In this document: positions 664-63,162 of the stretch, piece after piece
How positions within the stretch are numbered: the first letter of the stretch is position 1
Layout of the letters: every line of letters starts with the position of its first letter
Source: Tribonema minus
Lineage: Eukaryota; Sar; Xanthophyceae; Tribonematales; Tribonemataceae
Assembly (NCBI GenBank): GCA_017506865.1
Contig: JAFCMP010000046.1
Location: 1-64,000, forward strand
Length of the DNA stretch: 64,000 nt
Direction: 5' to 3'
The notes under the pieces: generated by a model
The model's database searches: none
What the model saw: the letters and a program-made list of their open reading frames with translations, nothing else
Told to the model about the DNA's origin: nothing
Position numbers and translations under genes: made by a program

Positions 664-1160
664 CGTGCGCCCTGCGGATGGCGGCGCAGCGTCGCCGCGT
701 GGCGAGCATTCAATCTTGCATCGGACTTTGATCCAAACAGCAAGTCCAAGTCGACGCACGCGTACCAGTGGACCAATGGGCGTGTCTACTCTTCACAAGT
801 TTTACTCGATGTACGCGTGCCAGCGGCGTGCGCCATGCGGATGGCGGCAAATGCTTATGACTTATGGCACCGTTCTGAGATAATAATACTTCCGCCGTAC
901 CATTTTCACGGACGTTAGACAATGCGGAACATCGTGATCAACGGGTGTAATCTGTCTGTTTGCAGGTTGATTACGGCAAGCCGCACGTACCTGCAGAGTG
1001 CGCCCTTCGGATGGTGGCGCAGCGGCGCCGCGCGGGGAGCCAGAATCACCTTCAAACCTTGGGGAGTACACATATCTCTTGGTTTGAAATTCAATTGATA
1101 GACAAATATCATTACGTACCAGCAGAGCGGGCCCTGCGGATGGCGGCGCAGCGCCGCCGC
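664..1160 (-). repeat. Four decayed copies of the 1286 exon donor edge
   Basis: The end of the exon at 1286-1427 (CTGCGCCGCCATCCGCAGGG followed by a GTACG donor) recurs near 1118-1155, 985-1040, 830-862 and 664-712. Each copy is on the same strand, downstream in transcription, and mostly keeps a GTACG-like donor. Upstream exon sequence is lost progressively. Confidence 0.7.
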
Positions 1161-1285
1161 GCGGCAAGCATACATACAGGTTCTCATGGACGCAACCTTG
1201 CAACGGACTTTGATCATATATAAATCCAAGTCTATGCATGCGTACCAGCGGACCCATTGACGAGTTAGATTTGGTATGTGCGTAC

Positions 1286-3507: not shown

Positions 3508-3745
3508 ACCATCTCCGATGCTCCAAGGGGGGCTGGGTACCCATGGTCGCCCCAGCGCTCGGTGCATTGTGAACGACGCGTTTGAACGACAGCTTCAAGT
3601 ACAACTTCATGACCGTATCATATGTCACCTTGAGCTGAGCGATGCAGACGTCGATGCCGCCGCAGCGCTCCGCATTTGTGCGCATTGACCGACATCAAGG
3701 ACACCTTCATGATCTGTTGCGCACCACCTTGAGCTGAGCCGATGC
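3508..3745 (-). repeat. Donor-edge copies of the 3794-3949 exon
   Basis: The exon end (GGCATCGACGTCTGCATCGC, then TCAGCTCAAG and a GTG donor) is repeated downstream at about 3630-3680 and in short form at 3731-3745. A more degenerate piece lies at 3508-3590. The first two keep the AAG|GTG donor. Confidence 0.75.
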
Positions 3746-3793
3746 ACCGAAAACCTAACTTCAAGTGCAACTGTATGATGTAATGTGCATCAC

Positions 3794-4018
3794 CTTGAGC
3801 TGAGCGATGCAGACGTCGATGCCGCCCCAGCGCTCCGCGTACGTGCGCTTGAACGACGCGAATTCGGGCGTCGAGTCTACCACTGTGCCACGGTAGATGA
3901 CAAAGTGGTGCAGCGAGAACTCGTCCAGGAGCTCCAGGTAGCCGCGGATCTGCGCGGTAGGGGTAGGGGTTAGGGTTAGAGTTAGTGTTACGGTTAGAAA
4001 CAGCAGCAGCAGCAGTGT

Positions 4019-17891: not shown

Positions 17892-20800
17892 GTGATGCGG
17901 AGGGTGTGCTGCTACCATGCGTGCCGCCCAAGTGCATGGCCACGAAGTGCTCGGCCGTGCTCCAGCGTGCTCAATGATTCGAGCCGGAGACACAGCAGCA
18001 GCAGCAGCAGCAGCACCAGCGGCGCTGGCGCTGCCGGCAAGAAACACAGGGCCTTGCTAGTCAATGGGCGCGCAATGGCGTACGAAATACTGAGTGAAGT
18101 TAAACGGGAGGTGGAGCTCATGGGAGAGAAGAGAGGCATGGTGCCAGGGCTTGCAACAGTGCTGGTCGGTGACCGCAAAGACAGCGCAAAGTGAGTGGCG
18201 GGATGAATCCGGGCTTCAGATCACCGAGATGGCCAATTCTTGTGATTCAGAGGTACATCGTATACCTCGGTTGTGCAGCTGCACCTGTCGCATGAGTGGG
18301 AGTGCAAACGATCAGTGTGACTTGGCTACTGGCACAAGCTTCCACTTGGTTGCGCAATCAAGGTTCCTCGCCGTAGTCCCAGAACGAAGGCTCTATAACA
18401 TTGGACTCGTTTTAGAAAGATGGCACAAAGATGACTGATGGCACACAGTGTGTTTCATGTTCTGCAATGAAGCTGCTGTCAAGCGTCAACTACGACAAAA
18501 GGAATCTGCTGGTCAGTGTGCAGATGCTCCGGGCTATCGGAAGTGCACAGATTGGCTGCAATAGCTTGACAGTAATTGTAACGGGCTTATGCATCGCAAG
18601 AGACAGCGTGAACTACGAACTCCTTTGCGCAGGAGCAGCATGACAGATGATCTACAATTGCAAGTCTCGTTCAGTTCATTTGTCGGCTGGTGATTCGACC
18701 ACAGTGAGCTCAATGACTTCAACACAACACTGATCGCTTTACGCAGGAGCAGCGTGATAATCTAACCAAATTTGCAATGAAATTCTCTTTAGGTCATTTT
18801 TCGGCTGGAGATGCGACTACAGTATGCTCAACGACCTGAATAACTCTGCACTGACTGCCTTCTGGCGCCCTTGCTGGCTGTGGGAGCGGAACAGTGCGCT
18901 GTTCCAGCTCTCTTCAAGTGACTTGAGCTGTAATACCGAATGTTACTGCATGTGAGCTCCTGGTATTGATCGTAAACAAAGCACCATGTCGGAAATGGCA
19001 CGCCATGCTGATGTTCCGTATGCTTGGAAGTGCTCTTGAAGCGCATACAGTAGGTAGCTTCCGAAAAGCTGGCACACAGACACACCACAAATGCAAGTAG
19101 AAATGTGACGCGCACGTCGGGTGGGAGCGTATGCCTCAAAAGTATATACTTCATACTTGACGTACACTTCTGCTGCAGGGGCAAGGGGCAGGACCACGTG
19201 TCAGGGCCATCTATGACTTTTTGTCTTACAGGCAGCGCACCGATCGCTGCCAGCGTCATGCCAGAGGCGACGCTAATGCACCTGACACGTATGCCACTAT
19301 TAAGGGCTCTCTACCCTGACCGTAACCCCAAGTAGCATTGGCTCTTGAAGTAGTGTCATGATTCCGTTGCGTGGCAAATCGGCAGCAACGTCGAGCATTT
19401 CTGAAGGTGCAATTTCAATTTGCCAGATTTCACTTGTTGGCAATGGCTGCCAATGTCAAGTCGCAGTGTCAATATGAGGCAGACAATTCAAGGTTACCAG
19501 TATGCTAGCCACCATGAACGGATTCCGGAGGCTTGCTCAAGTACCGACTAAGCTCACTTGTCTTTGTCACAGGCCTACTAATAGGCTTCGTGACACATTG
19601 GTGCTGCGGACGACTGTAGGTTCTCATATGTCCAGGCAATCCATTGCTAACGCAGGTCCCAGACCTGCGTGCGATGCCGGTTGCTTTACGCAGCTACAAT
19701 TCGACACTCAGTGTGACCTGGCCCGGCCTCAGGGGCACCTTAGGGTCTAGGGCAGCGGTAACATTCAGCGAAACGTGCCAATGGCACGTGCCTGGCTCTC
19801 AAGTCTCGCGCAGCTCGTGCATCGTTAACGGGTACAAGGGGCGTGCGTTGTGCAGCGTTTCTGGCAGCTCCAGCATCACTACTGCAGCGCGCATCCATAT
19901 GCCGAGCACCGACCACTCTCTCACGCGCTCCTGTCTCGCGCTTGGACTGCGCAAATAGTGCAGCTATCATCGTCATCGCGCACAAACCCGCGCGTCGTCC
20001 CCCGCGCCGCCGACACAACGCATGACAACCTGCTGCTGGCGGCGCGACTTGCAATTCCATGCGCGCTGCCTTGGCTCATGTACATGCCTGCCCTGATGTG
20101 ATACTTCATGTCAAGTTGAAGTATGGCACCTATGGATGATCGTGCTGCGTGCTCAATCAGCACATGTATCTCAGGGGCGTATGCGTATGCACACCTCGAC
20201 CCTGCCGCACAATCATGTACATGCATACTTCCGCACGGCATCGGTTGCGGCGGCGCTTTTTGCTGCCGGCGCGGCCCCCTTGTAGCCGCCAGAAAGCACC
20301 TCTTAACACCCCCCCCCCCCCCCTCCTTCCCCTTCTTACCCAGATACGTGGGCATGAAGCACGCCGTCGCGAAGCACGTGGGGTTCCTCTCGCTCGCCAC
20401 CAAGCTGCCTGCGGACGCGACGATGGAGCAGGTGCTCGGCGCCATCGCCGCGTACAACGCGGACGAGCGCTGCCACGGCATCCTGCTGCAGCTGCCGCTG
20501 CCGCCGCACCTCGACGCGCAGGCGCTGCTGGGCGCGATCCGCGTGGAGAAGGACGTGGAGTGCTTCCACCCGCTCAACACCGGTGCGTACGTGTGCACTT
20601 CCTGAATCATAATTGTGAGGTATACACCTTGAAGTAGTGTACATTGGCATGGAGAGGGGCGTGGACTGCTTCCACCCGCTCAACACCGATTCGTGCGTGT
20701 GCACTTCTTCAATGATGGAAACGAGCCAAAAGATTGTAGAGCTCCAGGTGACAAGGTGTGGTGGTCAGCCGCCAATCATGATATAAGTTGAAGTATACTT

Positions 20801-45000: not shown

Positions 45001-48000
45001 GAGGGTACTGGTGCAGAGTGGACATGTGTTTCCTGGGGGGGAAGGGGGGGGGGGGTCAGGCGATGCTCATTATGATGTGCAGTCGCCGCGGTTTCGACAG
45101 TTCACCAGATGATACTGAGATGCATCCCGAGGCTATGTGCGAAGATGCGGCTGACCCGAAGACCTACTTGCACGCACCGCAGCAGCCCAAATGTGCCTCG
45201 GGGTGAGTATTATACTAATAGGAATGTAACCGGCCACCCACTCCTGGCGGCCGGCAGTGTGCCTCGGAAGACCCGTGCGATCCGCAACTATCATTGTGAA
45301 GTATGAATGAACGCGCTGGCTCACTGGTTCATCGTGCATCTTTAAACGCCGTTGTTTCAACACGCATACCTGCGCCATTTGCAGGGAGCGCGCGGAGGTG
45401 GCGGAAGCAGCGCTGGCAGAGATGGCGCCCGCAGGGCCGCAGCTCACGCCCGAAGAGACGGCAGCGCTGGCGGAGCTGGAGGAGCGCAGCGCAGGCAACA
45501 AGAAGCAGCAGCGGCGCAGTCGACGGCGCAGCAGCAGCAGCGGTAGCGGCGCGGCGTCCAACGCCGATGACGCGTCCGAACAGGAGGAGGAGGAGGGCAG
45601 CGACGGCGGCGACGGTGACGCGCAGGACGATGAGCTCGAGTCGTCGAAGCTGTCAGCCGATGGCAGCAGCGGCGGCAGCGGCGACGGAGGGTCCAACGCG
45701 GAGCAGCCCGCAGCGGCAGGGGAGGAGGAGGAGGACGAGGCGGCGGCGGCGCGGCGGCGCGCGCTGCAGCTGGAGCTGTCGTTCCACGCATCGGCGCTCG
45801 CGTTCGGCGACGCGTTCGCGTCCGCGACGCCGCGCCTGTGCGAGCTGTTGTCCTCGCGCAGCGCGGGCGACGTGACGGAGGCGCTGCGGCTGCTGGCGCG
45901 CGCGCGCCGCTTCGGGGCGCGCGGCGCAGCGGACGGCGCGCGCGCGGGCGCGCTCGCGCTCGCGTGGCACGCCGAACCCGCCGTGCGCGAGGAAGCGGCG
46001 CGCGCGTTCGTCGAGGCGTTCGTCGAGTGCGACGACGACGCACTGGCGGCAGGCGGCGGCGGCGGCACAGTGGAGGGCGGCAATGACGGCGAGGAGGAGG
46101 AGGAGTCGTCGGCAGCGGCGGCGGCGGTGCGCGCGGGCCACAACCTCGTGGTCCTCGTCGCGCAGAGCACTGCCGCGGATCTCGTGTCGCTGGAGGAGGT
46201 GGTGGGCGGACTCGTGCGCTCCGGCGCGCTGCCGCGCGGCGTGTTCGAGAGGCTGTGGGCGGCGGCGGCGGCGCGCGCGCAGCAGGGCTGGGCGCGCGCG
46301 GCGGCGCTGCGCGTGCTCGCCATGGGCGTCGCCGCGGACGCGTCGCTAGCGCCCGACGCGGAGCGGCTGCGCGAGCTGGCGACCGTCGCTTTGGGTGAGT
46401 GAGTGAGTGAGTCAGTGTTTGAATAACAGAGTGTGCCGCCGCGTGAGTTGAAGTTTGGCGCGTCACGCACGCGCGCACAGAGAACGATGCGCGAACCGCG
46501 TGCGCGCGCGTGCTCAGGAGACACGGCGATGCAGGGCGCATGACGCGGCAAGTGTTGATGTCGCCACGAGCGTGGCGCGCGCGCGCCCTGCGAGCGCGCA
46601 TCCGTGCCACCAAGTTGCCGTGTGGCGCTCTGCGTGAAAGCGGCCAAGGTAATGTAAAAGTGGACGACAGCCTGAGCGCTGCTGCAGAGCGGCACGCCTC
46701 ATGTTACATATGACCTACCCAGGCGGTGGCGCACCTGATGCGGCAGCGCTCGACTGTGACCCCGTCACACGCTTCCGCGCTGCTCTGACGTGGATGATTC
46801 ACCCTGATTGCAACCCAGCAGGCAAGGCGATACGGGACGCGCACGACGTATCTCATGCTACGTTCTTCGTGAAACAGTGTACGTGCATGCAGATGTGTAA
46901 CGTACACAAACGTATGCGACACAAACTGAGAGAGGCCGGCGTGCCGGACGAGCGGAGACGCATCCGCGCCCGACGCGCAGCGCAGCGAGACTACATGCCT
47001 ACCGCATGTAGCGTCACGACACGCAGCTATGTTATTGGCTCGCGTGTGCACGCCGTGTACGCAGGCAAGGCGACACAGGATGCGCGCGACTGGGTCACGG
47101 TCAAGGCGGCGTGCACGCTGCTGGAGCGCTGCGCGCCGGCGCCGCGCGGCGACCGCGGCGCCGCCGCCGAGGCGTGCCTGCGGCGCATCACGGGCTTCCT
47201 GCAGGTGCGCGCCGCTTGAGGTTGCAGCCCTGGTGTTGATGTTGAGTTCTTGAGGTTGTATGTGGTACTCGGATGAAGCGGTCGGCGCCGCCGCGGTGAC
47301 GCGCCCGCGGTGGTGCGCCTGCGGCGCATCACCACGGGGTTCCTGCAGGTGCGCCACCGCTTGTTGAAGTCGCAGTCGGGTGTCCTGGTGTTGATGTTGA
47401 GTCCTTGAGGTTGTATGCGATGCTTTGAAGTACAGTACAAGCATGATCGGTGCGTTGGGAAGTGCCCACGAAGGCGCCAAACCTGTTGGTCGCGGAGGCG
47501 TGCCTCCGGCGCATCGCAGGGTTCCTGCAGGTGCGCGCCGCTTGAAGTTGCAGTTTGGTGTTTCGGCTGCGTTGTTTCGTCGTTCAAGTTGAGAATGTCC
47601 GTAAAGAAAGGATATGATCCCAAGCATGACTGTCATCAATGTACCATGAAGTCATTCTACACAATAAAACAGCTGTGCCGTCTGGTTCTGATGACAACAA
47701 ATGCATGGTGGATGTATGCGGTACTTCAAGCATCACGAGCTTCCTGCCGGTTGGTTGATCGTTTCATCCCCGAAACCGCCAATGTGTGCTTCTTTTCATT
47801 AGGTAAACGGCCTGTACTCCCACACACACTCTGCAGGAGCAGCGCGGGCAGGCCAGAATCTCCGCCTGCATGCTGCTTTAGACTCCTGAGCACCGGACAA
47901 GTACTGTAGCCGCTGCTCTCCGCCTTCAGCGGGCGCGCTGCTTGAAGTTACAGATAGGCGTCCTGGTATTGGATGTTGAGCTCTTGAGGTTGCATTCGGT

Positions 48001-51000
48001 ACTTTGAAGTAAGGTACAGGCACGAACGGTGCATCTGCAACTGCCCGCAAAGGGATTCAAAGCAAATGTAGGTTGTCACTGTACATTGCTGAGGGGATCT
48101 GTGCGCGTGCTTTGCAGCTGCTTCTTGCTCAAGTTGGAGGCTTGTTGCCGGCGACCGCGCAACTTGAATTTGCAGCAGCGCGCGAGCGGCAAGCCTGTCT
48201 GCGGCGTTGCTGCTTGGGCAGCAGCCAGATAAACAACTGCAGAGGGTCTTTTGTACACAGGACGCTCCCAACAGCAAGCAGTCATGTTGCAAGCTTTGTG
48301 CGGCAGAGATGACATGCCGTGCCGCTGTGCAGCGCTGCCCCGCGCATGCAGCGCCCCGCCGCCGCCGCCTGCGCTGCGCGCCGCCGCTGACCGCGCCCCT
48401 GCTGCCGCACGCTCGCTCGCGCCCTGTCTCTCTGCGGCAGGGCGCCTGGTGCGACGATGAAGGGCCAAACGCGGAGGGCGATATGGACGCGTGGTTCGCA
48501 GCAGCGGAGGCAGCGCTCGGCGCGCTCTTCCGCCACGCGCCGCGCCCGGAAGCGGCGTGCGCGGGCGTCGTGCGCGCGGCGGCGGCGCAGGTGCGCGCGC
48601 CCGCTTCCTGTCCATCTACATATATTTCATTCTCGTAGAGCTGTTCGTCTCGGTGGATGTGGTTTCGTCTTTGAATTGCGGTACTGCCACCGGGGTACAC
48701 GCGCAGGAATGAGCGCCGCGGCCGGAGGCGTCCTGCGCGCGGCGGCGGCGCATGCGCGCGCTCTTGCAGCCTATGTACCCGCACTCTCTCTTTTCCTCTC
48801 TCATTCTCGGCGGAGTTGTTTATCGTATCAGATTCTGAGCTTCCAACTCCTTGATCTGCCCTGGCGACAGCCAATATTGTAGGCGTGACCAGACAGCCCC
48901 TGTTCAGGGGTACATACAGTTTTGACGGATGTGGTGTCGTCTCGGAATCGCCGCGCCCCAACAGGGGTATGTAGACGTTCAGAGATGAGCAGCGAGGGCG
49001 TGGCCGTGTGGCAGCGGCAGCAGCGCTCTCAGCCGCACACGTCTCCGTGTGCGCGCTGTGCCGCAGCGCCTCTGTGGTTATGCATGTATTGACAGCCTGT
49101 GCGCGACTGCGCATCATTGCTCAGCAAGGAACTTCGCGACCCGCGCTTTGCGGCGCCTGCCGACTCGACCTTCAGCATCACGCACTGCCAACTTCAACTT
49201 CTGTACCTCGCGCACCGCCCTGCACGAGCAGCGAGGCTGGCACCTCCCCCCCCCCCTCCCCCCCTTCACGCTTTATCACTTGCGCCTTTTTCACAAGCTT
49301 TGTGCGCTGATGCGTTCCGTATGGGAGGGCATCTTTCAACCGTGCCTACCAGCTACCGCCTCTACTGCATCTGTGCCTGACCCTCTTTGGCTGCCTGTCA
49401 GCACGAGCTGTGACTTGGCACACGCTGCCGGCTTCACCTGGGGGCTTGCAGAAAGTACCCATTCTCCGCCTGATCACACATCATCAGGCCATCCACATTC
49501 TCAAAATGCGAGCCTCGGCATCAACGCTCATCCGCGGTTTTTGTTGCAGACGCTCTGCCTCGACACGGGCGCCGCCGCGGCGTCGCCGCTGTCGCTCATG
49601 CGCCTGTGCTTCATCGTTGGCCACGCATCACGCGTCGCCAACTTCAGCTATGCACCTCGCATTGCCCTGCGTTAGCAGCGAGGCTGGCGCCCCCCGCTCT
49701 GCCCCCCTCACGCTCTCTCGCTTGCACCCTTCATCATTGAGCCAATCACGTTTCCAGATTGCGAGCCTCAGCATCAGCGCTCATCCGCGTGTTTTTTTCT
49801 GCAGGCGCTCTGCCTCGACACGGGCGCCGCGGCGGTGTCGCCGCTGTCGCTCGCGCGCCTGTGCTTCATCGTCGGCCACGCGGCGCTGCGGCTGCTAGTC
49901 TACGCGGAGGACCTGGCGTCGCGCATCAAGCGCGCGCGCGGCGACGGCAGCGGCGGCAGCGGCGGCGGCAGCGGCGGCGGCGGTGCTGCGAAGAGCAAAT
50001 TGAAGGGGGCAGCGGCGCAGCAGGTGCGTGCTGGATTGGTGCATGACAAGGTGCATGATGTGCTTTGAGAGTGTACTCTGTCAACGTTGTCACTAACGCG
50101 TTTCCAGATATTGGTGTGTATGGGTCATATATACACGCAGCGGCGCACGGTATGTGCAGCACCAGCGCTCCACATCGCAGATCAAAGGGACAGACCCCAA
50201 GTGATACGTTTGCGACTGGCATCACAGCTAGATGCTCAAGAAGCAGATTTTATTGATGCACTACAGGGTGCTGACATCTGTGCTGTGCATCGAAGGGCTG
50301 CCATGTGTGCACAGCGGCAGCGCGCTTCAGAGCGCACATGGCCTAACCCTAACCCTAACCCTAACATGGCTCAACAACTCACACGAAAAGAGCGCATCGC
50401 GTCAACTGTGCGGCGCAGCGGCTCGGGAATTGTATCAGCACCAGCATCTTGCCGAGCACTGGCGAGACGCTGCCGCCTTCACATATGTCTGTACATTAAT
50501 ACATACCCCTAGAGGAAACTCACTTTTCAAAAGATGCATTGAACGTGTGTGCTGATTCTACATTTTTATTTCAGCAAGTTCTTCTGTAGCGACGAACACT
50601 AAACTGTTCACGTGCAATTTCATGCTGCGCACGAACTTCACACAGTTCACGTGAATCCTTGCGCTGCGCAGGGCGATGCCAGCGACGGCGACGAGGGCAG
50701 CGGCGGCGGCGGCGAAGAAGAAGCGGAACAGACGGGAGGCACGTCAGCGGAGCAGGATGCGGACGATGACAGGATGTTCCAGGACCTCGTGGACAGGGAG
50801 ATCGTAGGGCGGAACCTGCTCGGACTGTTCGGGCCGCTGCTGGCGCGCATCGTCGCCAACGAGGTACGTCTCTGTTGAAGTTTGTTGTTGAAGATGATGT
50901 ATTGGAAGATGGCGCAGGAGGCTTCCTCTGGCTGCTGTCCGCGCACACCCTGCATCCCCCACGCGCAGCTCTCCCGCGAGCGCAAACCTCAAACGCCCCC

Positions 51001-54000
51001 CCCCCCCCTCTCACAACTTCAACTCTGCCTTAAACCGAAACACACCCCACCCCCCGCACGCCGCCCGCAGGACGGCGCCTTCGGCCACCCGCTGCTGCGC
51101 GAGTCCGCCGTGCTCGCGCTCGCCAAGTACATGTGCGTCAGCGCCGCGGCGTGCGAGCGCTACCTGCCGCTGCTCTTCACGGCGCTGGCGGCGGCGGCGC
51201 CAGCGGCGGCGGCGCGCGGCGCGCAGCTGCGCTCCACCATCGTTGTCGCCCTCGGTGACCTCGCCTTCCGCTTCCCCAACGCGCTCGAGCCGTGGGGCGC
51301 GCGCATGTACGCGTGCCTGCGCGACAGCGCTCCGCGCGTGCGCGGCGACGCGCTGCTCGTCCTCACGCACCTGATCCTCAACGACATGGTCAAGGTCAAG
51401 GGGCAAGTCAGCGAGATCGCGCTGCGCCTGCGCGACGCGCTGCCGCGGCTGCGCGACGCCGCCAAGGTGCGCGCCGCTGCTGCCGCCGCCGCTGCTGCTG
51501 CTGCGGCCGCTGCCGCTGCGCGCGCGGCGCCTGCTCTGTCACGCTTGCTTCGCCCGATGTGCTGGTGTTTTCCTGTCAGTGGAGTCGGCGCACGCCCAAG
51601 CATGGTTGAACCGCTGAGTGTATCGTTGCAGTTGTCGGACACGTGTGCGTGGGTCGTTAGTGCGTGCGAGCGGCGAGGTGTGTGCGATGCTGACAGGGTG
51701 CTTTGCGTGCGTCGCGCTGCAGCTGTTCTTCACGGAGCTGTCGAAGCGCGGCGACAACCCCATCTACAACCTGCTGCCGGACATTGTGAGCAGGCTCAGC
51801 CAGGTACGTGCCTCTGCGCCAAAAACATGCCAAAAACCATGCCATAAACAAAAAAAAATGCGCTCAGCCAGGGAAGTGTCAGCAGGCTCAGCCAGGTACG
51901 TTGCCTCTGTGCCAAACATGCTCTCAGCAAGTTGCGTTGGGGTTGGGTCTAGGAAGCCATGATTGCCGTCCAGGGCTGCCATTGCTAGCTTCCGCTGCAC
52001 GCTGCTGTGCCCTCGGGCCATTAAGGTGAGCAACGCGTGGGTGTGCTGGAGCGGCATGTTAAGTCGCCCTGCTTCGCCCTAACCCTTATCCTATACCCTA
52101 AACCTAGCCCTAAGCTTTCCTGTACCTACCCTGCACAATTGCGGTTGTCGAGAGGTGTGCGTTACGTCATCATATGATGATGCGCGGCCTTGCAATGTGT
52201 CAGCAGACTTGATCTGGCATCCTTTCATGGGCAACCCACGAGGGTATCATGATGCGCACAGCATAGACCCTGTCACACCTACCGCACCCACCAGAACCGC
52301 ACACGGTCCCCCATGTTCCACGCACAGCAGTAGATCCCATGTATCATACGCCATCGCCATGCACGGCGACACCATCAGAAGCCCTCACGTTCGCAGTCTG
52401 ACGGCGCTGCATACCTACATACCCCGTCATCACGTCTCAGGAACCCGACCTGCCGCCGGGGGGTTTCCGCGAGATAATGGGGTTCCTGCTGAGCTTCATC
52501 AAGAAGGACAGGCAGGCGGAGGGCCTGCTGGACAAGCTGTGCGCACGCGTCGCCGCCGCCGCCGACGCGCCGCAGCAGCGCCGCGACCTGGCGTACTGCC
52601 TCGCGCAGCTGCAGGTGAGAGAGCGGAGACTGCGAGGGGCGCCGTGTGATGACATAATAGCAGTGCTCAGCATGCAAGCTGTGCGCGCACGTCGCCGCCG
52701 CCGCCGACGCGCCGCAGCAGCCCCGCGACTTGGCGTACTGCCTCGCGCAGCTGCAGGTGAGCATGTTGAAGTTTGGGATTGGGCAAGCCCAGGTACCCGT
52801 CAGCGTAGGCGGCGAGAGGCTTTTTGTTATGACAGCAGTGCTCAGCATTTGACTGTCGCGCCGCCAACGCGCTGCAGCAGCTCCGCGAGCTGGCCTACTG
52901 CCTCGCGCAGCTGCAGGTGAGACAGCGGAGCGTTGTGTGATGACAGCAGTGCTCAACATTGACCGATGCGCCGCCGCAGCAGCGCCGCGACCTGGTCTAC
53001 TGCCTCGCGCAGCTGCGGGTGAGAACGTTGAAGTTTGGGAGTAGGGTTGAGGCCCAGGCAGATTCGCCTGTCAGAGTGGGCGGCGAGGGGCGCTGTGTCA
53101 TGACAGCAGTGCTCAGCATTTGCGGCAGCGCCGCGACCTGGCGTACTGCCTCGTGCAGCTGCAGGTGAGACAGCGGAGGCGGACTATTGCGCACTCCTGT
53201 GGAAAAGCTGCCCGCGCTTTTGCTTCCCATACGCTTTCAAGTTGAAACGTCTGAGTTCTGCCAGCTCTGAATGCGGTTAAGTGAGACCCTCTCGTTCGTT
53301 GATGCATCTTTGGTAGGGTGCTGCTCTACAGGGCGTTGATGCCAATGCTGCCGCTGCCTCTGCTGCTGACGCTGCCGCAGGTGACAGAGAAGGGCGTCAA
53401 ACGGCTCGCCGAGTCCATCGCCACGTACAAGGTGAGGTTGAAGTTGAAGTGCAGTGGCACATATGCACGACACACCGCTTCCCAGAGCCATGTGTGCTTG
53501 CACTCGCCACGCATGTACCCATTGGCATGGTATTGCGGTCACCGTTTCTACCCCAGTCTGTGAGACGCTCACAAAACGTGCGTGGACACGACACATCATT
53601 GGAGTCAAGGGTGCCTTCACCCACAGACGACGCAGTGCTTACTCATCCTAAACCTTCAACGCAAAGTCCTTCCTTCACTCACAACATGCCGACAGCGGCT
53701 TTGTTTCTGCTCGTTACGCTGCGCAGGACGCATTCGGCGGCGCCGAGGTGTACGGCCACCTCCAGGCTTTTTTGCAACACGCATGTTTCCAGCTCGCTGA
53801 CATGACAGCCTGCGTGACACTGCTGCCATCGATTCCACTGCATCACTTCCTGATCCTGACGCTTACCCTACGTCTTTTCATCACAACATGCTGATTCTGG
53901 CTTCTGCTCTCCTACCAACCACAGAGCAAGTGTCTCAGCGCTGATATGTTGTCGTCTTGCTTCGACGCTGCTCGTTGCGCTGTGCTGCAGCAGCGTGTAT

Positions 54001-55508
54001 GGTGAAGCATCGCTTGCTAACCCCAACGTCTCTCCCTAAATCCTCGCTCGCAACACTCATTGTAACGCAAAGTCCGTCATTTTTAACATGCCGATTCTGG
54101 CTTCCTTTCCGCTCGTTGCGCTGCGCAGGACGCGCTCGGCGACGCCGAGGTATACGGCCACTTCCAGGCGCTCGCGGCGCGCGCGAAGAAGTTTGCCAAG
54201 CCGGAGCTGCGCGCGGCCGTGGAGGAGTGGGAGGCGGCCATGGCGCAGCTGCACGCGGGCGGCGCCGACAACGAGGGCGCCGCCACCAGGTACGCGCAGC
54301 AGCAGCGTGCGCCCGGGTGGTGTAGATACATTGCAGCTCAGTACCGGTACGACACTAGGCGTTGTCGATGCAACATATCTCGGTACCTGTACGACATTGA
54401 CAACGAGGGCGCCGCCACCAGGTACGCGCAGCAGCAGTGTGCGCCTGGTGTTGTCGATACAACGTGTCTCGGTACCTGCACGACAGTTGCACAGCGTATC
54501 TCGTTACCTGTACGACACTGTGTTGCACAGGTGCCGACGGTGTCGTACAGGTACCGAAATGCGTTGCATCGACAACACCTGGGCGTGCCGCAGCAGCAGC
54601 AGCAGCAGCACTCCTCAATTAATCTGCTTCGTGGCGACCCCAGGGTGTCAGTCACACCCCCACCGCAGCATGCGCTCTTCAAAGTGCTGCTGCATGCTTG
54701 ATTGCATCAAGCTGTTTTGATGCTTCTGATGCTTCTCACGTTGGCGTTGTGCGCGACGATGAGAGCGTTGCCGCCACGTACGCACTGTTTGTTGAAGGCT
54801 GCGGGATGAGGGCAGCATCTCTGGTGCGCGTGCGCGCCGCGCTGAGTGGGTGGGGGGCACGGGCGCGGCTGCACGTGCGTGACTCCAATGACAATTGCGG
54901 TGTCGCCTTAAGGCATACGTCGCAGCGGCGCAGCCGCCGAAGCACGGCGACCGCAGCCTCCAAAAGCGCACGCGGGCGCAGACCTCTAGAGAGCACACCA
55001 GGCCCACGACCGATGCAGCAGCGGAGGCGCGACAGCAGTCACCTGCACTTGAAGTTGCAGTTGATGTTGAGGGTAACATAAATGAGCGCTGCTTCTGCTG
55101 CCGCGCAGGGCCACCAAGGCCGCGCCGCGCTCGCGCAAGGCCGCCGCCGCAGCAGCAGCGCGTTCGTCCGCCGCTGCGCTGGACATGGAGGCGGTGGAGG
55201 CGCCGAAGCCGAAGGCAGCGCCCGGCAAACGCGCGCCGCCGCGCAAAGCCGGCGGCGGCGGCGCCACGGCGGCGGCTGCAAAGGGCAAGAAGTCTGCTGC
55301 CGCGACCAAGAAGAAGAAGAAGGAGTGGTCGTCGTCGTCTGAGGAGGACGGCGACGCGGCAGCGCTCAGTGACAGCGACGGCGGCGGCGCGGGTGGTGGC
55401 GGCGGCGATGTCGCCAATAAAGAGAATGTGATGTCGCCGCCGCGCGCGAAGGGCAAGGGGGGCGGGCGGCTGCGCAGGGGGGGCCGCGCCCTTGCGGAAA
55501 ATGCGTGA
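42065..55508 (+). CDS. NCAPD2: Condensin complex subunit D2 (CND1/NCAPD2), complete
   Basis: Fourteen exons: 42065-43163, 43726-43983, 44651-44906, 45385-46394, 47065-47204, 48441-48590, 49805-50023, 50672-50863, 51071-51466, 51723-51803, 52441-52614, 53381-53431, 54129-54289 and 55109-55508. They total 4587 nt, an unbroken frame of 1528 residues (human about 1400). Family landmarks are LPVLLPHLGSEPYALRSGVV, GLLDILEERAARDASGYTRA, ALVRRAAAQLLGALLERNPYG, LCFIVGHAALRLLVYAEDL, ENLLG-like RNLLGLFGPLLARIVANE, the Cnd1 core HLILNDMVKVKGQVSEIALR, FFTELSKRGDNPIYNLLPDI and FREIMGFLLSFIKKDRQAEG. HEAT repeats fill most of it. Acidic Ser/Gly-rich inserts lie in exons 4 and 8. The Lys-rich C-terminus ends KENVMSPPRAKGKG, a possible CDK site. 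It is the HEAT-repeat subunit of condensin I, acting on mitotic chromosomes. Confidence 0.95.
46815..46856 (+). repeat. Acceptor-edge copy of condensin exon 5
   Basis: CAGCAGGCAAGGCGATACGG followed by GACGCGCACGAC repeats the intron-exon edge at 47059-47095 about 245 bp upstream. Confidence 0.75.
47280..48010 (+). repeat. Donor-edge copies of condensin exon 5
   Basis: The exon end (TGCGGCGCATCACGGGCTTC, CTGCAG|GTGCGC) plus about 80 bp of intron (GCCGCTTGAAGTTGCAG, CTGGTGTTGATGTTGAG) recurs at about 47280-47430 and 47490-47590. An intron-only version lies near 47925-48010. Confidence 0.8.
49165..49740 (+). repeat. Acceptor-edge copies of condensin exon 7
   Basis: At 49546-49636 the exon start (GCTCTGCCTCGACACGGGCG ... 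TGCTTCATCGTTGGCCACGC) is repeated before the true exon at 49805. The adjoining intron (AGCGAGGCTGGCGCC) is repeated at about 49165-49285 and 49620-49740. Confidence 0.8.
50342..50364 (-). repeat. Interstitial telomeric repeat
   Basis: Nearly four perfect CCCTAA units in a condensin intron. Confidence 0.9.
51866..51903 (+). repeat. Donor-edge copy of condensin exon 10
   Basis: GTGTCAGCAGGCTCAGCCAG followed by GTACGTTGCC repeats the exon end at 51803 some 90 bp downstream. Confidence 0.8.
52660..53164 (+). repeat. Four donor-edge copies of condensin exon 11
   Basis: The exon end encoding RRDLAYCLAQLQ recurs, ending near 52756, 52916, 53018 and 53164. Each ends in CTGCAG or CTGCGG plus GTGAG and is led by TGACAGCAGTGCTCA-type intron sequence. 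The first copy is longest (includes LCA..AAAADAPQQ region); later ones are shorter. Confidence 0.9.
53720..53785 (+). repeat. Acceptor-edge copy of condensin exon 13
   Basis: CGCTGCGCAGGACGCATTCG and GAGGTGTACGGCCACCTCCA repeat the true edge at 54120-54165 about 400 bp upstream. Confidence 0.85.
54313..54582. mobile_element. Foldback element, copy 2, partly duplicated with the exon edge
   Basis: A complete palindromic copy lies at 54444-54582: left CCTGGTGTTGTCGATACAAC ... CGGTACCTG, right GTCGTACAGGTACCGAAATG ... CATCGACAACACCTGG. A degenerate partial copy lies at 54313-54396. Between them the condensin exon 13 end (GACAACGAGGGCGCCGCCAC) is duplicated at 54397-54421, so exon edge and element arm were copied as one block. 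Confidence 0.7.
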
Positions 55509-56542: not shown

Positions 56543-59500
56543 CTACTTGGCTTCGTCGGCGGCCACTTCCATGGGCTCTGCGCCCCCCTCCGCCTTGTCC
56601 TCCTCCATGGGCGCAACCCCCTCAGCCCCCTCCTTGGCTTCGTTGACGTCCATGGGTTCGCCGCTAGTCGGCGCCGCTTCTGTGGGCGGTGCCTGCTCCT
56701 TCTTCTCCTCCTCCTTTTTCTCTTCCTCCTTGGGCTTGGGGGCAGGCTTCGGCTGCGTCATGATGGGCTTGCAGGTCTGCGTTGACGCGCAGCAGGAGGG
56801 GGTGGGAGAGTCAGCACTTGAAGTAAGCAAATAAGGCTTTTCCCGCTTCAAGATCACGGCCAAATGTCGTCGCCACACAGCACCCCGTCCCGCCTGCCCG
56901 ACAACTGAGGCTGTCAGGACGTTGCTCACAAAGTAGGTGCACGCAGCCACACGCAGTGCATATAGGCAGTTAGGTCTGCACAGCACTGCAACACTGCCAT
57001 GGAGCGTGTGCAGCTTCAAAAGATGCCAAAACTGCAAGACGTGACGCTCACCTTGTGCAGCTCCTCCACCTGTGCCTTGACGTCAGCAACCCTGAGGCAG
57101 GGGTCCTGAGTCGCGGGCAGCGCCCCTTGCTTGGCCTGCATGTCGAAAAGCCATTCCTGAGAGCAACAGAAGGGCGGGGGGGGGGGGGAGGAGAGATCAG
57201 CTTGCATGTCGCAGTGCTGCCCATGAAAGCGGCAGCGTTGTGCCAGGCCCTCATGCCATGAGAAATGATGGCTGTGCGTGATAACGGTTGCGTGCATCAG
57301 ATGGCAAGTCCCAATCGGGCGGTGCAGACGATGTAACAATTCCTGGGGAGCTAAGGCAGGGCGAGGTTTGTACATGAGTGACACGAATCACTTTGGCCGC
57401 AACAGGGGCAAACTCAGACACCAACCAAGCAGCTCTGCCCTGGGGCACTGTGACGCACTCTAGTCATGCCCAGCTGACTGGTCATATGCCTGCTATTGAA
57501 GTGAGTAAGAGTGACCTTGTTGCTTCCCAACACGACACCGTCGAGATGCTGCCCGGCGCAAGTGGGCTGAGACCGCCTCTGTTGAACTGAATACAAGTTG
57601 AAGTTATTGAGACGGGGTGACGCACCTCTGCCTTGCGCGCTCTTTGTCAGACTGCGTCTACTTGAAGTGTGAGTGGGTGTGAGTTGAAGTTGTTGAGCTG
57701 CTAGAAGAGTGCGCGTTACGTGACTGGGAGTTGAATACACTGAGACGGGGAGACGCACTTCCGTCTTGCGCGCAATCGCGCGCGCTTTGTCAGACCACCT
57801 CTACTGAAGTGAGTGTGAATTGAGTGAGTGACAGTTGAAGTTAATGAGCTGATGAAGTGAGTGCTAGTTGAAGTTGACAAGATGGGGTGACGCACCTCTG
57901 CCTTGCGCGCGTTCGCGCGCACTTTGTCCTTGTCGTCGTCGCTCACGTGCGCCGTCGTTTCGTCCTGGCTGTTGGCGAACCGCTTGTACACGTCCGCCGC
58001 CAGGCGCAGCTCCGCCGTCGCCGCTGCAGGGTTCGGGTCAAGGGTTAGGGTAAGGGTTACGAATAGGGTTAGGCAGCCGCTGCAGCAGCGCGGGGGGCAC
58101 AGTCAAACACGGCTCAACACAGAGAATTTATTCTATGGCAAGCGGTGAGGCGAGGCCTGCCGTCATTTGAGGGATCTCGTCCCTCGGGCAGCGGCGGTTG
58201 TGCGCGGCGCCGGCTGCACGCGCCGCAGCTGCCGCCACTGCATCAACATGCAGGAAGCAATGTCTCAGCGTGGAAGCAGCAGCATCGCGCGTGCGGGTCG
58301 TGAAGCGCTGCAGCGAATGACGACGGATTCGGGCGTCGTGACCGGGACGTGGGCGGCGGAGAATCGCAGTTGAGCATTATCAGCCTTGCTTGCGGGCATC
58401 TGCCCTTCAACAGTGACGCCGGCATTCCCGCCCTCCAGATGTGTTGCGTCGGACGAGCGGACAGGTCCCCGTCTACCCCATCACGGGCGGTGCTACCCTT
58501 TAAACGTATGCTTTCGTTGAAAACACAGCCGAGCAGGCTGGACGCGCTCATCGAAACGCAATGCTGAGCTCACCACTCCCGTCACCAGCTGCGGAGAGCA
58601 CAAGGCGCCGGACTAGGTCGACCTCACACAGCCTGTGTGCGACCACGTCTCCGCCGACGGCGGGCTGTGCGTCAACGCTGCGTTCTACGGCCCGCGCGGG
58701 GGCAAGCATCCGCAAGCGTCCGCAAGCGTCTCCGCCGACGGCGGGCTGTGCGTCAACGCTGCGTTCAACGGCCCGCGCGCGGGCGAGCATCCGCAAGCGT
58801 GTCCGCAAGCGACAATTGTCCGCAAGCGTCCGCAAGCGACATAGAACGCAGCGTTGACGCACAGCCCGCCGTCGGCGGAGACGTGGTTACACACAGGCTG
58901 TGTGACGTCGACCCAGTCCGGCGCCTTGTGCTCTCCGCAGCTGGTGCGCTTGCCCCAGCGCAGGCCGTAATGCGCACGGCCAATGCACAGACCGCCGTCG
59001 GCGGAGACGTGGTTGCACATGGGCTGTGTGACGTCGACCCAGTCCGGCGCCTGGTGCTCTCCGCAGCTGGTGACTGGTACATGCTTCAAGTGCGCTGTTG
59101 CATCCACAATAGACAGACCTGTGCGTTATGATCACTTATTCACGTAGACCAACAACGCGGAACTTCAAGTGTGCACTTGCTCGCCTGCTGAGCACTGTGC
59201 ACTCACCGTCGCGGTTCTGCGACGCGTACGGGCGCGCCTCAAGGGGACCTCCCAGTGACAAGCAGGCTCACCGTCTGCAACTTCAAGTGTGCACTTTATG
59301 TTGTAGCCCTGACACCCTAATCGTCAACAACGCGTAACTTCAAGTGTGCACTTGATCTTGTTACAAGCTAAGCACTGCTTACGGCACTCACCGTCACGGT
59401 TCTGCGACTCGTACAGGCGCGCCTCGAGGGGACCTCCCAGTGCCTGCAGATCCTTGAGCTTGCCCGCATAGACGGACTTGGTGCTGTCAAAGCCCTCGTC

Positions 59501-62500
59501 GGAGTATAGCCTGCACGAGGGGGGGGGGGGGGGCAACAGGACAGGAGGGGGGGGGGGGGGGGGGGGGTCAAATCAGGCAATGCAAACATTACTGTTGATG
59601 TTTGAGGCTGCATCTGACACATGCGTTGAGGGTGCCAATGCTTGACACGGCGAGCGACATGACGTCACCACTGGTGCTTCATCCTATTAGGGTCAGGATT
59701 AGGGTTAGCTAAGCTAACCCTGACCTACATGTGCACCGCAACTGCAGCTCTAATCCCAACCAAGCGCTGATAGGCGTGAGAGCCCACCATGGGTGAGAGC
59801 CCACCTGACCCCAACCTTGGTCTCATTCACACACCAGCCCTTGGTAAAACCTAGGGTGAGGGTTAGCGGCAGCTCTCGCCCCCCAGCTCGATCCCAACAT
59901 GCTGCGCAGACTCACCACTCCTCCGCCTGCTCGAGCGTCATCGACAACGCCGCCGCCTCCGCCGGCGCGGTGAAGGACACGAGGTCAGCCAACCCCCAAC
60001 CTGACGTTAATTCAAACCTCAACACCGTGACTCAAACCTCAACACTCTGGCGCAAGCTCACCGCTCCTCCGCCTCCGCCGGCGCGGTGACGGGGGCAAGG
60101 TGACCTGACCCTTACATCCATCCTGCGTTCTAGCCCTAACTCTATTCCTTTTTCATGCCTGCTTTTCATGTTGCCCACCACTCATCGCTCCTCCGCCTGC
60201 TCAAGCGCCATTGACAGCGACGCTGCCTCGGCCAACACTGCGAAGTTCGCAAAGTCACCTCACCTCAAACCTGACTCAAACTCAAACCTCAACACTCTGG
60301 CGCAGACTCTCCAGTCCTGCGCCACCTGCTCCAGCGCCGTTGACAGCGACGCCGCCTCTCCGCCGGCACGGCGAAGTTTGCGAGGTTACCTACCCTGACA
60401 CTAACTCAAACCTCAACAACACTTTGCGCAAACTCACCACTCCTCCGCCTGCTCGAGCGCCGTCGACATCGATGCCGCCTCCGCCGGCGCGGTGAAGGGC
60501 GCAAGGTCGCCGCCGCTGCCGATCCTGTCGCGCATGGAGTAGATGTATGCCTCGAGCTCGTTGCGCTTGTTGCTCGTCTCCTTCACGACGCGGTCCTGGT
60601 TGGCCATGCTCGCCTCCGCCTCCACGGCAGCGTTCACCTGAATTCATGTGGATGAAGAATTTAATTGATTCATTCTGGACAAAATTCATGTGCGCACAGT
60701 GAATTCATGTGGATGAATTGAATTACTTCATAAATGAAATTCATGCGCGCATGCAGTAGATGTACGCCTCGAGCTCGTTGCGCTTGTTGCGCGTCTCCTT
60801 GACGACGCGGTCCTGGTTGGCCATGCTGGCCTCCGCCTCCACGGCAGCGTTCACCTGAATTCATGTGAATGGATTGCATAACTGAAATCCATACGCGTGT
60901 GCAGCAGATGTTGCGCATCAATTGGTTGCGATTATTGCTCGTCTCCTTCATCCCGGTTGGCCATGCTGGCCTTCGCCTCCACAGCGGCGTTCACCTGATT
61001 CATGTGGGTGAGTTGCATGAACCCAAACACTGGAATTCATGCATGCATGGGTTTCAGGTCTGGACGTGCTCATCGTCGCTGAATGCGTTGCTGGTTGGCC
61101 ATGCTCGCCTCCGCCTCCACGGCAGCATTCACCCGAATTCATGTGGATGGATTGAATTAATTCATGAGTGAACTTCATGCGCGTGTGCAGCAGATGTTAC
61201 GCCCGAACTTGCTGCGCTTGGCACTCACCTGTTGGAGCACGAGTGATAGAACAGGAAGCGAGCGATTGAAAGGATGGGTGACAGCACAAACGCATGAAGT
61301 TCACGATAACGTCATGAACCGTGGTGGCCTCTGCCTCTGCTGCTGCGTTTCCTGGGTGATACTGTCACAGAGTGTTCATCATTCATGTGCTTGTGTGCAT
61401 GAACAAATGAATGAAGCCATGCACGCGCGCGCACGCGGAGCACCGCACAGCACCAGCACACACACCTCTCTCTCTCGCGCAAATACGCGTACGAGCAAGC
61501 GACGGAACACCGCGTCGGCACCGCCAACTTCAACTTTGAGCATCACCATCGTTAACAGCGGCGCACGCACCTGGTTAATCTTCCAGGCAGCTGTCGCCGC
61601 ATCCACCGCGAGCGTCACCGGCTTGAACTTCTTCTTGGCGGGCTCCGCAGGCACGGGCGACGCGGGCGCCGCCGCCGCCGCCTCCGCGGTCTCCCCCTCC
61701 TTCCCCTCCCCCTTCGCCTCCCCCTCCTTCCCTTCCACCTCCATCGCAGCCGCCGGCGGCGCGGCGGCAGCGGCAGAGGCATCGGCGGCGGCGGGCGGCG
61801 CTTCCGCCACCTCCTCCATGAGCTGCGCACTCTGCAGCTGGATGATGCCGTTGAGGTCATGCCTGGCAGCAGCGGCAGCGGCGGTGGCGCGGCAGCAAAC
61901 GCGAAGGGGTGAGTGCTGCAGCCAAGCGATGGTGCGGCGCGGCGGCAGCACGTCGGAGCGCGATTCAAGCACTGCTGAGCGTCGATGGGGTGCGGGGGCA
62001 GCGCGTCCGATGGCGTTTCTGGCGCTGCGCGTGCGCGCGTGCTGAGCACCGATGACAGATATGCTGAGCGCTGCGCGGAACGATGCCGCCGATGGGCCAC
62101 ACGCAGGTGCGTGGGGAATGCGCGCGCATCGAAATGTAAGCATGCGCACAACTGAGTGCTGCTGCTGGCGCTGCTGCTGGCGCTGATGCTGCCGTCTCGC
62201 ACGCTTTCGTGAGTGCTCGGAGCGACCAGCCTGGGGGAAAATGCGATCAGCTTCGCGCTGCACGCGAGCGCGTGCGCGTGCGAAAGGGGCTGCCGCATCT
62301 GTCGCAAACGCTATGCGGAGTGCCCGCAGCCGGCGCCTCGGTTCGCGCATCTGTGCCTGAGCGCTGCCTGAATAAGCACCAATCAGTGCTCAACAACGCT
62401 GGTGAGGAGAGAGCGACCCCCAGCAACGGTACCCCGCAGTGTGCCGCCACCTGCTACACTCGCCCATAGTGCCTCGCCGGATGGTAGACGGTGCGTGGCG

Positions 62501-63162
62501 GAGCGCGCGAACCCTAACCCTAACCCTGAGGTGCCCTAACCCTAACCCTAAGGTGCCCAACCAGCTCTTGAGGTCCGTTCTGACCGCACAACGATCGGCC
62601 CAACGTGTGCGAACGCTATCCCCAATTCTAAGGTGCTTGACCAGGTCCTGAGGTCTGTCTTGAACGCACAACTATAAACCCATGTAGCGCATGTGCAGGG
62701 CTTGATGCGGTGCTTGCCGCGCTCCGCGCACAATCACGGCGGCATGCATTCCGTAGTTTAGTGCACAACGCGCGCTCGCTGAGCTGTGCCGCGCCCGCGG
62801 TGGCGCCCCAGCGCAACCTGCCGGTGCAGCGCGCCGCCCGCCTCAGTAGACTTCAAGTGCAGAACTTCTAATTCAGAACTTCAAGTAGCGTGGAGCGTCG
62901 CCTCTCACCTGACGCTGATGCGCACGCTGCACGGCGGCGACGCGCCCTTGAACTGCTGTGAGGAGACTTCAAGCAAAACTTCAAGTATACAACTTCAACT
63001 ACATAACTTCAAGTAGGGTGCGAGCGTCGCCGCTCACCTGACATTGATGCGCACGCTGCACGGCGGCGACACGCCCTTGAACTGCTGCGGGATGTCGATA
63101 CGGTAAGTGGCAATCTCCAGGGGCGCGCCGGGGGGCAGCAGGCTGGGGTCGTCGTAAACCGC
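56543..63162 (-). CDS. Hsp110/large Hsp70 (HSPA4/HSPH-type), C-terminal part
   Basis: Seven exons: 63038-63162, 61571-61862, 60438-60637, 59392-59510, 57896-58023, 57052-57156 and 56543-56776 (TAG). They join in phase to 400 residues. Order of landmarks: end of substrate-binding sandwich (YRIDIPQQFKGVSPPCSVRI, HDLNGIIQLQSAQLMEE), a long Ala/Glu/Lys acidic loop, EAEASMANQDRVVKETSNKR, NELEAYIYSMRDRI, EEWLYSDEGFDSTKSVYAGK, DALPKT-like EWLFDMQAKQGALPATQDPC, CKPIMTQPKPAPKPKEE, and an acidic EPMEV..DEAK tail. These match the helical and C-terminal regions of Hsp110, the nucleotide-exchange partner of cytosolic Hsp70. The N-terminal ATPase domain must lie beyond 63162, mostly or wholly outside the window. 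Confidence 0.93.
57615..57800 (-). repeat. Two donor-edge copies of Hsp110 exon 57896-58023
   Basis: The exon end (GCGCGCAAGGCAGAG|GTGCGTC) recurs at about 57620-57650 and 57752-57800 with GTGCGTC donors, amid TTGAAGTT-rich spacer. Confidence 0.8.
58036..58071 (+). repeat. Degenerate telomere-like repeat
   Basis: GGGTCAAGGGTTAGGGTAAG and following GGGTTA units just upstream, in transcription sense, of an Hsp110 exon. Confidence 0.7.
58570..59085. other. Inverted Cys/His repeat block, EsV-1-7-like, in Hsp110 intron
   Basis: On the minus strand, about 58845-59085 encodes two repeats of the form TSCGEHKAPDWVDVTQPVC, NHVSADGGLC, then A-x-YG-x-R-x-GK. The spacing C-x2-H ... DWVDV ... C-x9-C ... 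YG ... C-x2-H resembles the EsV-1-7 Cys/His motif of brown-algal lineages, with extra residues between the first two Cys. A third copy lies on the plus strand at about 58578-58705, so the block is a large palindrome. Short GCAAGCGTCC repeats fill the centre. It looks like an incomplete, broken fragment. Host or viral origin is unknown. Confidence 0.5.
59206..59258 (-). repeat. Donor-edge copy of Hsp110 exon 59392-59510
   Basis: CGCAGAACCGCGACG|GTGAGTG and the preceding exon sequence (GGAGGTCCCCTTGAGGCGCG) repeat the true exon end about 185 bp downstream in transcription. Confidence 0.85.
59914..60385 (-). repeat. Four donor-edge copies of Hsp110 exon 60438-60637
   Basis: Copies of the end encoding APAEAASMSTALEQAEEW lie at about 60309-60385, 60178-60258, 60059-60100 and 59914-59983, downstream of the true exon. 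At least two keep a GTGAG donor. Confidence 0.8.
60749..61132 (-). repeat. Three acceptor-edge copies of Hsp110 exon 60438-60637
   Basis: The start encoding VNAAVEAEASMANQDRVVKE recurs at 60749-60854 (35 codons, open), 60901-60994 and 61085-61132. Each follows an ATGAATTCAG-like acceptor. Similarity and length fall with distance from the true exon. Confidence 0.9.
62510..62552 (-). repeat. Interstitial telomeric repeat
   Basis: Two CCCTAACCCTAACCCT-type runs separated by GAGGTG. Confidence 0.9.
62906..62962 (-). repeat. Donor-edge copy of Hsp110 exon 63038-63162
   Basis: The exon end (CAGCAGTTCAAGGGCGCGTC ... CGCATCAGCGTCAG, GTGAGAGGCGACGC donor) is repeated about 130 bp downstream of the true exon with few differences. 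Confidence 0.9.

What the first reader, a model, noticed from the sequence alone, without database searches (positions are those of the whole stretch)
664..63162. Systematic copying of exon edges with their splice sites into neighbouring introns
In at least five unrelated genes on both strands, exon ends plus donor are repeated downstream, and exon starts plus acceptor are repeated upstream. I count over 35 such edge copies. They show a rule: copies lie only on the intron side, in the same orientation, with the complete exon innermost and decay increasing outward. This looks like intron growth by repeated tandem duplication across splice junctions, leaving many decoy splice sites. I know of no standard name for it.
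Basis: partly seen in the sequence, partly recalled or inferred. Interest (0 to 1): 0.88.

Follow-up and report, generated by a model that had tools for sequence, protein, structure and literature searches.

The report
Intron growth by splice-edge duplication
In this unnamed eukaryote, short tandem duplications across exon-intron borders have left introns full of decaying copies of the neighbouring exon's edge with its splice site, which hints that its splicing machinery finds exons by pairing the two splice sites nearest each other across the exon.

Summary
In three Pfam-verified genes (FolD, condensin subunit CND1, HSP110) 16 of 43 splice edges carry clean copies, 36 in all. Testable edge tiles: intron-side copy 13 of 34, far side 0 of 34, inverted 0 of 34, exon middles 2 of 91 (both inside one long edge copy). 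Twelve random 10 kb loci: edges 12 of 73, far side 1 of 73, middles 1 of 291. Chaperonin and kinesin genes elsewhere repeat it. Best explanation: serial tandem duplication, roughly 70-350 bp, across splice junctions. Selection keeps the exon; copies decay as if neutral (copy-copy divergence at codon positions 1-2 is twice real-copy). Read-through to a decoy would wreck the protein in 28 of 28 tested cases, so exon-proximal sites are presumably used, as exon definition predicts. 'Intron side only, exon innermost' follows from tandem duplication plus selection; 'decay outward' is only a weak trend (7 of 12 arrays). Junction-spanning clusters exceed random placement (16 of 20 non-exonic), but short ancestral introns and exon constraint could explain part. 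A single published precedent exists; six literature searches listed no genome-wide case. New variant of a known kind.

The parts
20344..20582 (+). FolD exon (complete), source of donor-edge copies
   Evidence: reading frame, Pfam THF_DHG_CYH E=4e-20
20647..21003 (+). 3 donor-edge copies of exon end 20582 (20647-20700, 20827-20881, 20949-21003)
21148..21434 (+). 2 acceptor-edge copies of exon start 21533 (21148-21219, 21363-21434)
21533..21804 (+). FolD exon (complete), copies at both edges
   Evidence: Pfam THF_DHG_CYH_C E=2e-57
21888..22633 (+). 6 donor-edge copies of exon end 21804
22731..22904 (+). 2 acceptor-edge copies of exon start 22979
22979..23248 (+). FolD exon (complete), copies at both edges
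23347..23599 (+). 2 donor-edge copies of exon end 23248
47283..47542 (+). 2 donor-edge copies of CND1 exon end 47204
49538..49617 (+). acceptor-edge copy of CND1 exon start 49805
51877..51908 (+). short donor-edge copy of CND1 exon end 51803
   Evidence: not refound with exon-only reference
52690..53176 (+). 4 donor-edge copies of CND1 exon end 52614; intron parts alternate between two types
53717..53767 (+). acceptor-edge copy of CND1 exon start 54129
54399..54448 (+). donor-edge copy of CND1 exon end 54306
57614..57791 (-). 2 short donor-edge copies of HSP110 exon end 57896
   Evidence: not refound with exon-only reference
59199..59257 (-). donor-edge copy of HSP110 exon end 59392
59904..60376 (-). 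4 donor-edge copies of HSP110 exon end 60438
60438..60637 (-). HSP110 exon (complete), copies at both edges
   Evidence: reading frame; Pfam HSP70 E=1e-5 over the spliced protein
60785..61144 (-). 3 acceptor-edge copies of HSP110 exon start 60637
62897..62958 (-). donor-edge copy of HSP110 exon end 63038
3593..3857 (-). edge copy (donor type, as I read the frames) of an exon of an unidentified gene (exon about 3794-3949)
   Evidence: Pfam negative
24350..24579 (+). edge copy (donor type, as I read the frames), unidentified gene
   Evidence: Pfam negative
29616..29943 (-). edge copy (donor type, as I read the frames), unidentified gene
   Evidence: Pfam negative
36221..37051 (-). repeated pieces around an exon near 36616-36726, probably edge copies, unidentified gene
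   Evidence: Pfam negative

Best explanation
Introns in this genome grow by serial tandem duplication of segments of roughly 70-350 bp that straddle a splice junction (exon edge + splice site + adjoining intron). Each event leaves the complete exon next to its own functional splice site and pushes a partial exon with a second splice site into the intron. The true exon is held by purifying selection; the copies and their sites decay neutrally. [quoted passage not shown] Shown: edge-specific, intron-side, same-orientation copies in many genes; units that include intron sequence; decay as expected without constraint; destructive outcome of read-through to decoys. Inferred: exon definition; that the decoys are silent; microhomology-aided breakage or slippage as the duplication step.
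For: Edge tiles 13 of 34 (window) and 12 of 73 (random loci) against exon middles 2 of 91 and 1 of 291, far side 0 of 34 and 1 of 73, letter-reversed null 0 of 125 and 0 of 364 (edge against middle, all together, p=5e-15); inverted 0 of 34 (window only). The intron part of the unit is homologous in 34 of 39 real-copy pairs. Clean head-to-tail example in L013: exon end 78 nt + 34 nt intron duplicated, 3 nt shared at the joint. Of 8 head-to-tail pairs found, 6 overlap by 2-5 nt and 2 have a 5-8 nt gap; of these 8, four (L013, L022, L023, L024) span a junction as I read them, with overlaps 3, 3, 5 and one gap. Real-copy mismatches by codon position 5.9/6.0/13.8%, copy-copy 12.6/11.4/18.4%: positions 1-2 fit independent unconstrained decay (2 x 5.9%), the surplus at position 3 fits synonymous change of the exon. 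GT kept in 21 of 25 aligned copies and AG in 7 of 9, counting only copies whose alignment reaches the edge, 19 of 21 and 12 of 14: near what overall identity predicts. 28 of 28 tested decoy positions would give a frameshift or stop on read-through. Choice of the site pair closest across the exon beside long introns is in print from genome-wide data and minigenes (PMC9225289; abstract and passages). Introns of the three genes run from 207 to 1368 nt, one 2600.
Against: No RNA evidence. In PMC9225289 the cross-exon rule is clear for donors; for acceptors the passages say only that the upstream preference is significantly reduced under exon definition, so silence of acceptor copies is less well backed. 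Intron parts of units carry 4-11 times more gaps than exon parts (5.6-6.4 against 0.6-1.4 per 100 nt), which pure neutral decay of one unit does not predict; ascertainment on the exon part and simple-sequence indels may explain it. Arrays are mosaic (CND1: unit types alternate), and the outermost copy is sometimes the closest to the exon (FolD 20582), so simple innermost-always growth is not the whole history. 80 HSP70 matches showed no partial duplicates by eye, and 7 of the 12 random loci had no intron-side edge hit.
Confidence: 0.75

Rival explanations
1. A mutational process aimed at splice junctions: breaks or paired nicks coupled to transcription or splicing, or an enzyme that cuts AG|GT-like sites, make junction-centred tandem duplications far more often than elsewhere.
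For: In the three verified genes 16 of 21 repeat clusters include a junction (4 of the other 5 are intron-only, 1 exon-only), where random placement over introns expects 0.22-0.42; at 85% identity or more 9 of 12. P(>=16 of 20) = 3e-6 at p=0.29, 6e-4 at 0.42, 6e-3 at 0.5. Over window and loci L002-L020, 26 of 58 young pairs against 8.2 expected. Copies look independently derived from the exon rather than from each other (positions 1-2 ratio about 2).
Against: If introns were short before they grew, a unit of this size would touch a junction anyway; exon constraint keeps a junction copy recognisable longer; clusters are few and not independent. In one search, 10 of the 15 sources with young pairs (window and loci) have no junction pair, some because genes are absent or missed by my gene finder. 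CND1 block duplication shows copies can be copied too.
Confidence: 0.25
2. The copies are functional: alternative or decoy splice sites kept by selection to regulate splicing.
For: Splice dinucleotides are mostly kept (21 of 25 GT, 7 of 9 AG); copy-copy mismatches are fewer at positions 1-2 than at 3, and exon parts have fewer gaps than intron parts.
Against: Positions 1-2 decay at the rate expected without constraint; 28 of 28 tested decoy positions would break the reading frame on read-through; exon-part lengths and spacings vary freely; retention of GT/AG is no higher than overall identity implies.
Confidence: 0.07
3. Introners, transposons or RNA-mediated copying placed exon edges into introns.
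For: The genome carries an RT element (RVT_1 in L015), and introners are known in algae and dinoflagellates (PMC7789003 passages).
Against: Copies contain unspliced junctions with adjoining intron, are oriented like their source and in part form head-to-tail units. Only nearby sequence was searched; whether copies also occur far from their gene was not tested.
Confidence: 0.05
4. Assembly artefact.
For: No reads could be examined; no independent assembly was available.
Against: Exon parts of 44 of 45 copies differ from the exon, by up to 22% (one 40-nt piece is identical), and the pattern recurs on 11 contigs.
Confidence: 0.02

Closest known systems
Potato RdRp gene duplication across an intron-exon boundary (PMC4974935; passages and results section read)
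   Same: A tandem duplication that contains the 3' part of an intron and the 5' part of the next exon; acceptor-type edge copy.
   Different: One event in one gene; there the copy became a new spliced intron plus inserted exon sequence. Here many genes, arrays of up to 6 copies, donor and acceptor edges, and the reading frames suggest the copies are skipped.
[quoted passage not shown] reviewed in PMC3443670, passages read)
   Same: Tandem duplication that involves splice sites.
   Different: That makes a new intron out of exon sequence; here existing introns lengthen and no new intron is needed.
Introner elements (e.g. Amoebophrya, PMC7789003, passages read)
   Same: Genome-wide repeat-driven change of introns.
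   Different: Introners are repeated introns with inverted/direct repeat motifs; here each copy comes from the adjoining exon edge.
Cross-exon proximity rule of exon definition (PMC9225289, abstract and passages read)
   Same: Predicts use of the exon-proximal donor among competing sites beside long introns.
   Different: Shown there with genome-wide data and transfected minigenes, weaker for acceptors; here only inferred from sequence in an unidentified eukaryote.

Membership tests
Junction-spanning tandem duplication (potato RdRp type) | duplicated unit crosses an exon-intron boundary and includes both exon and intron sequence | tested here: met
   34 of 39 real-copy pairs have homologous intron parts; L013 clean unit
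Junction-spanning tandem duplication (potato RdRp type) | copy becomes a new spliced intron/exon | tested here: inconclusive
   no RNA; read-through to 28 of 28 tested decoy positions would break the frame, but splicing of both ends of a copy was not modelled
AGGT intron gain by tandem duplication | new intron created from a duplicated exonic segment, protein unchanged | tested here: not met
   copies lie inside introns beside a complete exon and contain adjoining intron sequence
Introners | dispersed families of repeated introns with inverted/direct repeats | not tested
   edge copies match their own neighbouring exon; dispersal of edge copies over the genome was not searched
Whole-exon duplication / mutually exclusive exons | complete exon with both splice sites duplicated | tested here: inconclusive
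   copies found share one exon edge, but the references covered only 70-111 exon nt from that edge; the 7 edge-type pairs share one exon end only
Exon definition | nearest acceptor-donor pair across the exon is used | not testable with these tools
   no RNA data; consistent with reading frames

The most novel reading that the evidence does not exclude
This lineage has a hitherto undescribed mutational process that is focused on splice junctions (for example, nicks or breaks coupled to co-transcriptional splicing) and makes junction-centred tandem duplications the dominant way its introns grow, held harmless by strict exon definition in this eukaryote.
Probability: 0.22. Interest if true: 0.85.

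Novelty: new variant of a known kind. Interest (0 to 1): 0.6.

Why it matters
A single duplication across a splice junction is known; a genome with such arrays in many genes gives a natural experiment on how a spliceosome chooses among near-identical sites a hundred or so bases apart, makes exon against intron definition testable in this organism, and shows a route of intron lengthening that needs no transposon. It will also mislead gene finders: my own HMM chained decoys as exons in several loci.

Tried and rejected
Exon-edge-only copying (without intron): rejected after gap-tolerant alignment; a first fixed 40-nt measure made intron parts look nearly unrelated (0.67-0.68 against null 0.56), but they are homologous in 34 of 39 real-copy pairs. 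Selection on copies: not needed. Strict outward decay: only a trend. Window element 1582-1740 as an introner: more likely the 3' end of an RT element, since reading frames ending in the same peptide lie at or near the matches in L005, L006 and L008, and the L015 gene chain that ends in it holds RVT_1. Kinesin C479 pair looked like an acceptor-edge copy by protein coordinates but L026 shows no DNA repeat: dropped, leaving 6 of 7 pairs confirmed. Six of the 13 pairs were classed OTHER; as I read them, they are neighbouring exons with fuzzy ends or copy against copy; one (C279, query 24-87 and 57-103) stays unclear. Naming the organism: 18S genes were found (L027) but nothing here names them; six rRNA probe words gave no match, and the Arctic Pavlovales assembly in PMC9756366 (passages read) differs in size and scaffold number. 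Literature: 9 searches used; six bear on whether this is in print, the others on duplication mechanisms (52), the organism (63) and exon definition (83). None of the six listings showed me a genome-wide case; I saw titles and starts of abstracts, and passages of the papers named. The library lacks most subscription papers.

Limits: the gene finder was trained on this sequence and chains decoys as exons; the random sample is 12 loci of 20 asked for (8 contigs too short); the family scans scored 122 of 191 (kinesin) and 73 of 98 (HSP70) candidates. In one search the decoy positions were entered by hand and include some whose GT or AG is lost. Several Pfam queries are hand-joined: predicted exons with decoy pieces left out, and for L009 glycine-rich stretches too.
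Full report
The window is the start of contig C46 of an unnamed 158 Mb assembly in 554 contigs. I wrote a small HMM gene finder trained on this sequence and verified three intron-rich genes by reading frame and Pfam: FolD/MTHFD (+, 20.3-23.2 kb), condensin subunit CND1 (+, 42.1-55.5 kb; Pfam Cnd1 E=2e-34 on a spliced piece from its later exons, the other exons by reading frame only) and HSP110 (-, 56.5-63.2 kb; Pfam HSP70 E=1e-5).

Observation. Of 43 splice edges in these genes 16 have clean local copies, 36 copies in all (which searched only the intron side and the sense strand), each a terminal exon piece of about 15-110 nt with the splice site and some adjoining intron. In twelve random 10 kb loci with predicted exons of 90 nt or more: 12 of 73 edges, 1 of 73 far side (L011), 1 of 291 middles, 0 of 364 null. 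All together edge against middle p=5e-15. Low-complexity tiles were left out in both.

Generality. Protein-profile scans for chaperonins (56 matches) and kinesins (134 matches) gave 13 overlapping nearby pairs: 7 in which a partial match shares one exon end with a longer one and lies on the intron side, 6 classed OTHER. DNA confirmed 6 of the 7 (L021-L025), with up to five copies at one edge; the seventh (L026) was not confirmed. HSP70 (80 matches) showed none by eye. Five of the 12 random loci have intron-side edge hits: L009 (WD40), L014 (protein kinase), L018 (acyltransferase), L013 (RSN1_7TM below cut-off) and L020 (no Pfam match); L016 with an ABC gene has none.

What the copies are. They are whole units: the intron part is homologous in 34 of 39 real-copy and 29 of 36 copy-copy pairs. 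Some are textbook head-to-tail duplications; in L013 the unit is 78 nt of exon plus 34 nt of intron, with 3 nt shared at the joint. Arrays are mosaic: in CND1 the five units alternate between two intron types, which suggests that blocks of two were duplicated.

Decay. Against the true exon the copies differ by 5.9, 6.0 and 13.8% at codon positions 1, 2, 3; copies differ from each other by 12.6, 11.4 and 18.4% (45 copies, 20 edges examined, 16 of them in the window, 2 without a copy at this setting). Positions 1-2 double, as for unconstrained copies of a constrained exon. The excess at position 3 is what synonymous change in the exon would add. GT is kept in 21 of 25 aligned copies and AG in 7 of 9; 19 of 21 and 12 of 14 when only copies whose alignment reaches the edge are counted. 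Substitution identity of intron parts (0.85 real-copy) is near the neutral expectation for two free branches, but gaps are 4-11 times commoner there than in exon parts, which I leave partly unexplained.

Why it is tolerated. Reading into the intron to a decoy donor, or starting at a decoy acceptor, brings a stop or frameshift at 28 of 28 tested positions (19 donors, 9 acceptors; some of these have lost GT or AG). So the exon-proximal sites are presumably used. For competing sites beside long introns, published genome-wide data and minigenes favour the pair closest across the exon, beside short introns the pair closest across the intron; the rule is clear for donors, while for acceptors the upstream preference is only reduced (PMC9225289, abstract and passages). 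Under exon definition intron-side copies are silent and free to accumulate; under intron definition they would be harmful. This is inference without RNA.

Is the junction special? Of 21 repeat clusters in the three genes 16 include a junction, 4 are intron-only and 1 exon-only; at 85% identity or more 9 of 12. Random placement over introns expects 22-42%; P for 16 of 20 runs from 3e-6 (0.29) to 6e-4 (0.42), and 6e-3 at 50%. With predicted genes in the window and L002-L020, 26 of 58 young pairs against 8.2 expected (7 of the 58 lie in L005 and L007, loci fetched for the dispersed element; 10 of the 15 sources with pairs have no junction pair). Short ancestral introns and the longer visibility of copies of a constrained exon can explain part of this, so I hold junction targeting as a rival, not as shown.

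Known or new. A single tandem duplication across an intron-exon boundary is published for potato RdRp (PMC4974935, passages and results section read), and AGGT-type duplication is described as a genuine route of intron gain (PMC3443670, passages). Six searches listed no genome-wide case that I recognised. I file it as a new variant of a known kind.

Noticed in passing
introns of FolD, CND1, HSP110: The word TTGAAGT is concentrated in introns (2.42 per kb against 0.16 in exons and 0.68 elsewhere in the window) with a 30:10 sense bias; related 9-mers are 7-16 times over-represented in the held sequence. Possible intronic splicing element; part of the excess may come from the arrays.
   Followed up: partly
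1582-1740: A ~150 bp element with at least 40 near-identical places elsewhere in the genome, probably the 3' end of an RT-bearing element; the same C-terminal peptide ends reading frames in L005, L006, L008, L015 and a window frame at 29464-29490.
   Followed up: partly
653-1337: Four similar ~50-nt pieces; possibly an edge array, not assigned to an exon.
   Followed up: partly
58578-59077: A large inverted repeat with tandem 81-bp units inside an HSP110 intron, not junction-derived.
   Followed up: no
7085-7635: Degenerate ~25-bp tandem array.
   Followed up: no
4542-4575, 6143-6186, 62512-62562 and elsewhere: Short interstitial TTAGGG-type repeats, the most over-represented 9-mers of the held sequence in my count.
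   Followed up: no
acceptors in FolD and one in HSP110: Some acceptors are preceded by long runs of C, which differ in length between copies.
   Followed up: no
unit intron parts: Gaps are 4-11 times more frequent in the intron parts of units than in the exon parts; ascertainment, simple sequence or conversion not separated.
   Followed up: partly
10019-10213: Ribonuclease III domain exon on the minus strand.
   Followed up: no
G000:C300 and C303 (L027): The rDNA pattern matches contigs C300 and C303; L027 holds 18S, 5.8S and the start of 28S, and its end reads N.
   Followed up: partly
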